Below are positions 1 to 24,537 of a DNA stretch of 24,537 bases, piece after piece. Below the pieces are notes generated by a model. It saw only the letters and a list, made by a program, of their open reading frames with translations, was not told where the DNA came from and did not search any database. The position numbers were made by a program, and so were the translations under genes. The stretch lies in contig CAJXTZ010000035.1 of the NCBI GenBank assembly GCA_913061345.1, positions 1 through 24,537 on the forward strand, written 5' to 3'. This stretch comes from an uncultured Erythrobacter sp. (GTDB taxonomy: Bacteria; Pseudomonadota; Alphaproteobacteria; Sphingomonadales; Sphingomonadaceae). The first letter of the stretch is position 1. Each line of letters begins with the position of its first letter.

Positions 1-227
1 CAGGGTGAAGGGGGGCAGTTGCTGGCCGTCACCCATTCTCCGCAAGTCGCCGCGCGCGGGCGCACTCATTACATGATTGCCAAATCGAGCGAGGGCACGG
101 TGACCAAAACCTCCGTCGGCCTGCTCGACGAGGCCGGGCGGCAGGAAGAGATTGCACGGATGCTGAGCGGAGCGGAAATAACGCAAGAGGCCCGCGCTCA
201 GGCGGATCGATTGCTGGAGGGTGTTTG

Positions 228-20629: not shown

Positions 20630-20727
20630 AAGGCTGCTTTCGGAGAGTAACTTAGGTGGCGACGGTAAGAACATATCTGTTCGATAGGTATTTCGAACTG
20701 CTCATTCTTTTGGCAATGTGCTGCTAA

Positions 20728-21108
20728 TTGGCAGGCTTGAGTATTTACGAGCTGGTCTCGACCGGCACTCTTGATCTCCAGGCGGTAACAGCCACACTCC
20801 GCAGGATACCGATGTGGCTAGTATACTCTGGCGGTTGGCTAGGTTTAGCGATTTTTCTGAGAACCTTCTTCTTGCCAGCACTCTCTGCTGTCCTGAGAGG
20901 CTATCTTTTTAAGATTTCGGACAACTCATTATGTATAGCCGGGACTTGGATCGACCGAAGCGAAATTTGTTCTTTCAAATGGAGCCATTGGACAGGTGAT
21001 CTGCTTCTCATTACCTCGAACGAAAATTTCTCAGTTAACCCTCGTCTTAATCGAAATGGAAAAGCCGCGATTTCACTTTTTTTGGGTGATATTCGCCAAG
21101 ATTTCTAA
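20728..21108 (+). CDS. Doubtful AT-rich ORF, small membrane protein of unknown function
   Basis: An open frame of 126 codons between bdhA and guaB. It is unlike its neighbours: about 47% G+C by my count over 20761-21060 against about 62% in a sampled stretch of guaB. The product would have one strong hydrophobic segment (about 29-55, MWLVYSGGWLGLAIFLRTFFLPAL), then a beta-rich tail (YLFKISDNSLCIAGTWIDRSEICSFKW) loosely reminiscent of small bacterial PH-like membrane proteins. No good start is seen: TTG at 20728 or 20737 without a clear ribosome-binding site, or ATG at 20812. I recognise no family. It may be a young or transferred gene, or simply an open stretch in a low-GC island. Confidence 0.45.
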   Translation: MAGLSIYELVSTGTLDLQAVTATLRRIPMWLVYSGGWLGLAIFLRTFFLPALSAVLRGYLFKISDNSLCIAGTWIDRSEICSFKWSHWTGDLLLITSNENFSVNPRLNRNGKAAISLFLGDIRQDF

Positions 21109-21152
21109 CGCCTGATTCTCCGGGCTAAGACAAAGCGCACCCCACCCCCTAG

Positions 21153-22878: not shown

Positions 22879-24060
22879 ATGACCCCCGCAGCACGTATCC
22901 AGGCCGCTATCGAGATACTCGATAGCATCATCGAAGCCGCGAAGAACAACGGCCCTCCGGCAGACAGGTTGGTGGCGGACTGGTTCAAGAACCATCGTTT
23001 TGCCGGATCGAAGGACAAGCGCGCCATTCGCGAACACGTGTATGACGCGATCCGCGCTTGCGGCCCCGTGCCTGCCACGGGTCGCCGGGCGATGCTGGGG
23101 CTGGTGCAGGAACAGCCTGACTTGCGCGAACTGTTCAACGGCGAAGGTTATGGCCCGCCCAAGATCGGCAAGAACGAACAACCGGCGGACGGCGGCATTG
23201 CGCCCGAATGGCTGGAAGATCGCCTGATCGGCTCGGGTATTGGACAGGCTCAAGCCGAAGCGCTGCTGTCGCGCGCGCCGCTGGATGTGCGGATCAACCG
23301 GCTGAAGGTGGGTGCAGACCTCGCCGATTTGCCCAAAGCGGGAGAGAAGCTGGCCCTGGAGGCTGCCCTGCGCTTTCCGTCGGGCACGCAGCTATCGAAT
23401 TGGGATGCTTACGAGCAGGGTCTGATCGAGGTTCAGGATCTGGGCAGTCAGGTTGCTTGTTCTGCCGTCGGCGCGCAGCCGGGGGAAACAGTGATTGACC
23501 TGTGCGCAGGGGCGGGCGGCAAGACGCTGGCGCTGGCGGCTGCGATGGTAAACGAGGGCTCGCTGATAGCCGCCGATACCGACAAGCGCCGCCTATCCCA
23601 GCTTGGCCCGCGCGCGGAGCGTGCAGGGGCGCAGGTGGCCGAGACCGTGCTTCTCGATCCGGGCCGCGAGATGGAGGCGCTTTCTGCCTGGCAGGGCGCG
23701 GCGGATCGCGTGCTGGTCGATGCGCCATGCTCGGGCACGGGCACCTGGCGCCGCAATCCGGAAGCGCGCTGGCGCCTGTCTGCAGCCGAGTTGTCGCGGT
23801 TGACGCAGCTTCAGGCGCGCTTGCTGGATATCGCCGCGCAACTGGTGAAACCGGGCGGGTCCATCACCTATGTCACCTGTTCTTTGCTGGACGAGGAGGG
23901 GGCAGGGCAAGTCGCCGCGTTCCTATCCGATCACGCGGATTGGCAGGCAGAAACGCTCGACCTGCCTCTGGGAACCCAAAGAGGGCCGGGAATGCGTCTT
24001 ACCCCGTCCCGCGACGGAACGGACGGATTTTTCATCGCACGTATATCTAAGGCGTGTTAA
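22879..24060 (+). CDS. rsmB: RsmB/NOP family 16S rRNA (cytosine-C5) methyltransferase
   Basis: A 393-residue SAM-dependent RNA m5C methyltransferase of the RsmB type, expected to modify C967 of 16S rRNA. It has an N-terminal NusB-like helical domain (about 1-130), then LSNWDAYEQGLIEVQDLGSQ and the SAM site DLCAGAGGKTLALAA. The two catalytic cysteines are Cys284 in DAPCSGTGTWRRNP and nucleophile Cys334 in YVTCSLLDEE. The C-terminus has the usual LTPSRDGTDGFFIARI. ATG at 22879 is preceded by GGAG (22862-22877 region, spacing about 6). Some members of this branch methylate tRNA instead, so the position is inferred. It is probably in line with guaB but separated by 208 bases that hold no clear gene or terminator. 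Confidence 0.93.
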   Translation: MTPAARIQAAIEILDSIIEAAKNNGPPADRLVADWFKNHRFAGSKDKRAIREHVYDAIRACGPVPATGRRAMLGLVQEQPDLRELFNGEGYGPPKIGKNEQPADGGIAPEWLEDRLIGSGIGQAQAEALLSRAPLDVRINRLKVGADLADLPKAGEKLALEAALRFPSGTQLSNWDAYEQGLIEVQDLGSQVACSAVGAQPGETVIDLCAGAGGKTLALAAAMVNEGSLIAADTDKRRLSQLGPRAERAGAQVAETVLLDPGREMEALSAWQGAADRVLVDAPCSGTGTWRRNPEARWRLSAAELSRLTQLQARLLDIAAQLVKPGGSITYVTCSLLDEEGAGQVAAFLSDHADWQAETLDLPLGTQRGPGMRLTPSRDGTDGFFIARISKAC

Positions 24061-24120: not shown

Positions 24121-24488
24121 ATGCGTTTCGGACCTGTCGCCGCCGCCCTTTCTCTCGCCCTGGCATTGCAGGCGAGCATCGGGATCGCAGGCGAATACGA
24201 GGTCGATCCGCGGGCACAGGCGCTGGTAGCCGAAGGGCAGGCAGCGCTGGAAATGGGCGATACGCAAACCGCTATCGACGCTTTCGAGGCCGCGTTGGCG
24301 GTCGATCCCGGCTATACCGGCGTTTACATCGAACTGGCTGATGCTGCGCGTGTCGAAGGGCTGCAGGGCAAGGCGATCCATTATTATCGCGAGGCGCAGG
24401 AACGCGATCCGGAGAATCTCGCCGCCATCACGGGCGAGGGAGAAGCGCTGGTAGAGAAGGGCGCGTTGACCGCCGCTCGCGAGAACCT
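24121..24488 (+). CDS. Exported tetratricopeptide-repeat protein, truncated at the contig end
   Basis: The N-terminal 122 or so residues of a TPR protein. A signal peptide (about 1-23, ending IGIAG) is followed by two TPR units: ALVAEGQAALEMGDTQTAIDAFEAALAVDPG (about 37-67) and VYIELADAARVEGLQGKAIHYYREAQERDPE (about 69-99), and the start of a third. AAGGAG-type ribosome-binding site at about 24109-24114 supports ATG 24121. TPR repeats mediate protein-protein contacts in the periplasm; the partner is unknown. The native sequence ends at about 24488: the following bases are adapter, and in this frame they would encode the artefact CLLYTSPSPRD before a false stop. The true C-terminus is missing. 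Confidence 0.87.
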
Positions 24489-24537
24489 CTGTCTCTTATA
24501 CACATCTCCGAGCCCACGAGACTAGGCATGATCTCGT
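24489..24537 (+). other. Illumina Nextera adapter read-through (not genomic)
   Basis: 24489-24507 is CTGTCTCTTATACACATCT, the 19-base Tn5 mosaic end used in Nextera libraries. 24508-24522 is CCGAGCCCACGAGAC, the read-2 side adapter. 24523-24530 is TAGGCATG, which I recall as i7 index N706. 24531-24537 is ATCTCGT, the start of the P7 tail. The order is exactly that of adapter read-through, so this stretch should be trimmed. Confidence 0.98.

What the first reader, a model, noticed from the sequence alone, without database searches (positions are those of the whole stretch)
24489..24537. Contig ends in untrimmed Nextera adapter, creating a false protein C-terminus
The mosaic end, read-2 adapter, an 8-base index and the first seven bases of the P7 tail follow one another without a gap. 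Translated in frame with the TPR gene they give CLLYTSPSPRD and a stop, so an automatic annotation would report a complete-looking but chimeric protein. It also shows that this is a contig edge, not a real gene end.
Basis: partly seen in the sequence, partly recalled or inferred. Interest (0 to 1): 0.8.

Follow-up and report, generated by a model that had tools for sequence, protein, structure and literature searches.

The report
Untrimmed Nextera adapter at contig end
The last 49 bases of this contig are leftover Illumina sequencing adapter rather than bacterial DNA, and they give the last gene a false protein ending.

Summary
Bases 24489-24537 are, without gap or mismatch, the Tn5 mosaic end (19 nt), the rest of the Nextera read-2 adapter (15 nt), index TAGGCATG (N706) and the first 7 nt of the P7 tail. 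This is a printed order for an i7-side library end (passages of PMC10810209; index in PMC7589761). In four relatives the gene continues: identity is 81-87 of 100 bases up to 24488 and 10-13 of 49 after it. Their protein is 165 aa, and this copy breaks at residue 123. The adapter replaces the last 42 residues with CLLYTSPSPRD, and the first three index bases (TAG) supply the stop. Adapter-derived protein tails recur in public databases: in a capped search 7991 of 8000 scored candidates passed E<=1, and 120 of 120 listed end in LLYTSPSPRD-xxx-SRMPSSA. This is a technical artefact with no biology in it, of some curation value.

The parts
24489..24507 (+). Tn5 mosaic end (transposase recognition end used in Nextera), sequencing artefact
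   Evidence: exact 19/19 match; published library layout
24508..24522 (+). remainder of Nextera read-2 (i7-side) adapter, CCGAGCCCACGAGAC
   Evidence: exact 15/15 match; read-filter and library passages in papers
24523..24530 (+). i7 sample index TAGGCATG = N706; its first three bases form the false stop codon TAG
   Evidence: index table passage in PMC7589761 lists N706-A = TAGGCATG; codon view
24531..24537 (+). first 7 nt of the P7 tail (ATCTCGT...)
   Evidence: exact 7/7; layout
24121..24488 (+). genuine part of a tetratricopeptide-repeat protein gene (residues 1-122 and two bases of codon 123), truncated by the contig edge; about 42 native C-terminal residues missing
   Evidence: Pfam TPR models above cut-off; 88% identical to the 165-aa P0001 in the alignment and homologous through codon 123; nucleotide homology in four relatives ends at 24488/24489
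24490..24525 (+). false C-terminus CLLYTSPSPRD plus stop, translated from adapter and index
   Evidence: codon view; absent from the 15 relatives aligned and from the 120 homologues listed

Best explanation
Some Nextera library molecules in this sample had inserts shorter than the read length and ended inside the TPR gene. A gene caller would then read through the adapter to the in-frame TAG of the index and see an apparently complete protein of 134 aa (from ATG 24121). Shown: the sequence match, the index match, the break in homology at the junction, the edge position and outward orientation of the same adapter in other contigs, and adapter-derived protein tails in the database. Inferred: short inserts, missed trimming and low coverage at the tip.
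For: Exact 41 fixed bases plus a listed index. Printed layout adapter-i7-P7 in the same order. Identity to four relatives falls from 81-87/100 to 10-13/49 at the junction. The 15 relatives aligned run on into a shared tail with a conserved LCG..C motif or close to it; only one Leu of CLLYTSPSPRD aligns with an invariant residue. 118 of 120 IMG/VR stretches have the adapter within 60 bases of an end, reading outward. 90 of 91 matches with at least 4 bases after the index continue into P7 with at most one mismatch, and 12 of 123 carry this same N706 index. 120 of 120 listed database proteins carry the adapter-derived tail.
Against: None found against the adapter identity. Raw reads and coverage were not available, so read-through and missed trimming are not shown directly. 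Two of the 120 IMG/VR stretches carry the adapter more than 60 bases from an end (L064, 4687 bases; L119, 149 bases), so the edge position is not universal, and one match (L064) has neither a listed index nor a P7 tail.
Confidence: 0.995

Rival explanations
1. The mosaic end marks a real Tn5-type or engineered transposon inserted in the TPR gene of the organism.
For: The first 19 bases are a Tn5 mosaic end, which engineered mini-transposons also carry (general knowledge).
Against: The mosaic end is followed at once by read-2 adapter, a listed sample index and the start of P7, not by transposon DNA, and the contig then stops. The natural IS50 ends differ from the mosaic end (recalled, not tested by a call).
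Confidence: 0.002
2. CLLYTSPSPRD is a genuine divergent C-terminus of this TPR protein.
For: The reading frame stays open across the junction and ends in a stop.
Against: The 15 relatives aligned continue for about 42 residues with a conserved tail. The core of the same peptide ends proteins with many different Pfam domains (120 of 120 listed carry it). The DNA is adapter.
Confidence: 0.001
3. The stretch is genomic sequence that resembles an adapter by chance.
For: None.
Against: Chance about 10^-20.5 over the window; four relatives differ there; the exact 19-nt mosaic end is absent from loci L001-L005 on both strands.
Confidence: 0.0005

Closest known systems
Illumina Nextera / Nextera XT i7-side library end (mosaic end + read-2 adapter + i7 index + P7)
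   Same: Identical base for base over the 41 fixed positions, and the index is the listed N706.
   Different: Only the first 7 of 24 P7 bases are present because the contig ends there.
Adapter-tailed contigs in IMG/VR
   Same: Same 34-nt adapter within 60 bases of an end, reading outward, in 118 of 120 stretches returned; most matches go on into an index and P7.
   Different: Other indices in most (N706 in 12 of 123 matches); all three reading frames occur (45, 44 and 34 of 123).
TPR protein of Aurantiacibacter and an uncultured Sphingomonadaceae bacterium (165 aa, P0001, P0015, P0016)
   Same: Homologous through codon 123, and in L001-L004 it lies in the same place, downstream of the RsmB/F-type methyltransferase.
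   Different: The window copy lacks about 42 native C-terminal residues and carries 11 adapter-encoded ones.

Membership tests
Nextera i7-side library end | 19-nt mosaic end | tested here: met
   19/19 at 24489-24507
Nextera i7-side library end | read-2 adapter CCGAGCCCACGAGAC directly after it | tested here: met
   15/15 at 24508-24522
Nextera i7-side library end | 8-base i7 index from the published list | tested here: met
   TAGGCATG = N706-A in PMC7589761 table passage; same bases as Ad2.6 in PMC11584177 passage
Nextera i7-side library end | P7 tail ATCTCGTATGCC... | tested here: met
   first 7 of 24 nt present, then the contig ends
Nextera i7-side library end | not present in the genome of relatives at the same place | tested here: met
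   L001-L004 run on with other bases; exact mosaic end absent from L001-L005
Nextera i7-side library end | coverage at the tip made of read tails only | not testable with these tools
   no reads available
Real transposon (Tn5-type) insertion | transposon DNA continuing inward from the mosaic end | tested here: not met
   adapter, index and P7 follow instead
TPR protein (the host gene) | TPR motifs above Pfam cut-off in the genuine part | tested here: met
   TPR_19, TPR_16, TPR_2, TPR_1, TPR_8, TPR_14 above cut-off on 24121-24489

The most novel reading that the evidence does not exclude
Nothing novel at this locus. The boldest reading left is about databases: translated Nextera adapters form a recurrent false C-terminal tail on many unrelated predicted proteins, in all three frames, with the sample index deciding where the false stop falls, and such tails may be numerous enough to mislead protein clustering or motif discovery.
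Probability: 0.9. Interest if true: 0.2.

Novelty: not a real feature. Interest (0 to 1): 0.07.

Why it matters
It matters for curation only. Bases 24489-24537 should be trimmed and the last gene annotated as partial, running off the contig end. More widely, predicted proteins ending in CLLYTSPSPRD, LSLIHISEPTR or VSYTHLRAHET (or their extensions through index and P7) should be suspected of being truncated and contaminated. One capped database search gave 7991 candidates at E<=1 for a tail of the first kind; the 120 listed were checked and all carry it. The other two frames were seen in IMG/VR contigs but not searched in the protein database.

Tried and rejected
Tried: scanning the window's own whole genome for further adapter copies; no genome is held. 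Text searches for the peptides LYTSPSPRD and SLIHISEPTR found 0 papers each. Other text searches on adapter contamination or spurious proteins were seen only as listings and gave nothing used here. One search, which joined the mosaic end with two other terms, found 0 papers.

Rejected: a real transposon insertion, a native divergent C-terminus, and chance (see rivals).

The 60-base edge limit was my choice. Frames were taken as the longest open frame into the adapter, which is short in some loci and need not be a gene. The second protein search scored only 8000 candidates and lists 120. Its 40-residue query region held 21 adapter-coded and 19 native residues, and one of the 120 (P0121, 100% identical, contig of the same length as L015) appears to be the query contig's own protein. 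Tails were checked in the 120 listed only, not in all 7991.

Full report
What is there. The window's last 49 bases read mosaic end (24489-24507), CCGAGCCCACGAGAC (24508-24522), TAGGCATG (24523-24530) and ATCTCGT (24531-24537), exact and without gaps. A passage of PMC10810209 prints the same layout for a finished library: random sequence, then CTGTCTCTTATACACATCTCCGAGCCCACGAGAC, an 8-base i7 index, then ATCTCGTATGCCGTCTTCTGCTTG. A table passage in PMC7589761, headed as Nextera XT v2 index adapters, lists N706-A as TAGGCATG. Its primers begin with the reverse complement of the P7 tail, but their other end is not the Nextera adapter. A passage in PMC11584177 lists the same eight bases as Ad2.6. 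A passage of PMC6460022 gives the 34-nt string among sequences passed to a read filter. The 34-nt string occurs in 49 papers of the library (listing only). Chance is about 10^-20.5 over the window, and none of the adapter 12-mers tested occurs elsewhere in it.

Does the genome continue there? A scan of one genome per species with the neighbouring methyltransferase gene (22879-24057; Pfam RsmB/F) returned 5 loci, from Aurantiacibacter and uncultured Sphingomonadaceae. Four of them, L001-L004, reach beyond the TPR gene; L005 ends within the methyltransferase. In these four, ungapped identity over 24389-24488 is 87, 86, 81 and 87 of 100, and over 24489-24537 it is 11, 11, 13 and 10 of 49. BLASTN alignments stop at 24488 in L002-L004 and at 24489 in L001, where the next base happens to be a C. 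All four encode a 165-aa protein there. The exact mosaic end is absent from L001-L005 on both strands.

The protein. From ATG 24121 the genuine part gives 122 codons plus two bases of codon 123 (Leu), then CLLYTSPSPRD from the adapter and TAG from the index, 134 aa in all. A start at ATG 24073 would give 150 aa. Fifteen relatives were aligned, chosen by me from the 120 listed of 1997 homologues. These 15 continue past Leu123 with a shared tail of about 42 residues; the aligner places one Leu of the adapter peptide on an invariant Leu, and otherwise the tails do not agree. None of the 120 listed homologues contains an adapter peptide, so the window's own chimeric protein is not among them; the other 1877 were not seen. 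Both the genuine part and the chimera score as TPR proteins, so a domain scan does not reveal the error.

Is this a general artefact? They hold 123 matches. In 121 of 123 at most 60 bases follow the adapter before the end of the stretch. 90 of the 91 matches with at least 4 bases after the index continue into P7 with at most one mismatch; the exception is L064. N706 accounts for 12 of 123. The longest open frame runs into the adapter as VSYTHLRAHE(T) 45 times, LSLIHISEPTR 44 times and CLLYTSPSPRD 34 times. By stretch, 118 of 120 have the adapter within 60 bases of an end reading outward, and 3 have it at both ends. Only 2 of the 34 CLLYTSPSPRD cases stop immediately after PRD, as here (L010 with N701, TAA; L054 with N706, TAG). 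The sample index therefore decides whether the false protein looks neatly closed.

Protein databases. A search with the last 40 residues of an adapter-tailed reading frame from L015 (21 adapter residues, 19 native) scored 8000 candidates, a cap, and 7991 passed E<=1. The 120 listed all carry LLYTSPSPRD exactly 10 residues from their end, followed by three index-dependent residues and SRMPSSA. They bear many unrelated Pfam domains; by my count of the listing, all but three have a longest contig under 3 kb and all but three name ENA as a source.

Mechanism. Best reading: short inserts, read-through of read 1 into adapter, index and P7, no effective trimming, and contig extension into the read tails. 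The match, the homology break and the edge position are shown; read-through and missed trimming are inferred, since no reads were available.

Verdict. It is a technical artefact of a known kind, of low biological interest.

Noticed in passing
Reading frames change across it, which suggests a false join of two fragments through adapter sequence.
   Followed up: partly
L119:10630-10812: Adapter, N712 index and P7 tail (23 of 24 bases) are followed by 117 more bases, A-rich at first, so the contig seems to have been extended past the adapter.
   Followed up: partly
L042, L051, L109: Viral contig stretches with the Nextera adapter at both ends, reading outward.
   Followed up: no
protein database, P0121-P0240: 120 of 120 listed proteins share a false C-terminus from the Nextera adapter; 7991 of 8000 scored candidates passed E<=1. 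Two text searches for such peptides (LYTSPSPRD; SLIHISEPTR) found no paper in the held library.
   Followed up: partly
window 20639-21144: No BLASTN match to L001-L005 although both sides match; the relatives have DNA of other lengths there, so it looks like a variable interval. A 126-aa ORF lies here (20728-21108), before the putative IMP dehydrogenase gene (name from my reading of the sequence).
   Followed up: no
window 1-225: The window also begins inside a reading frame; the 75-aa fragment resembles the end of RecN (recalled; no Pfam match), with no adapter at this edge.
   Followed up: partly
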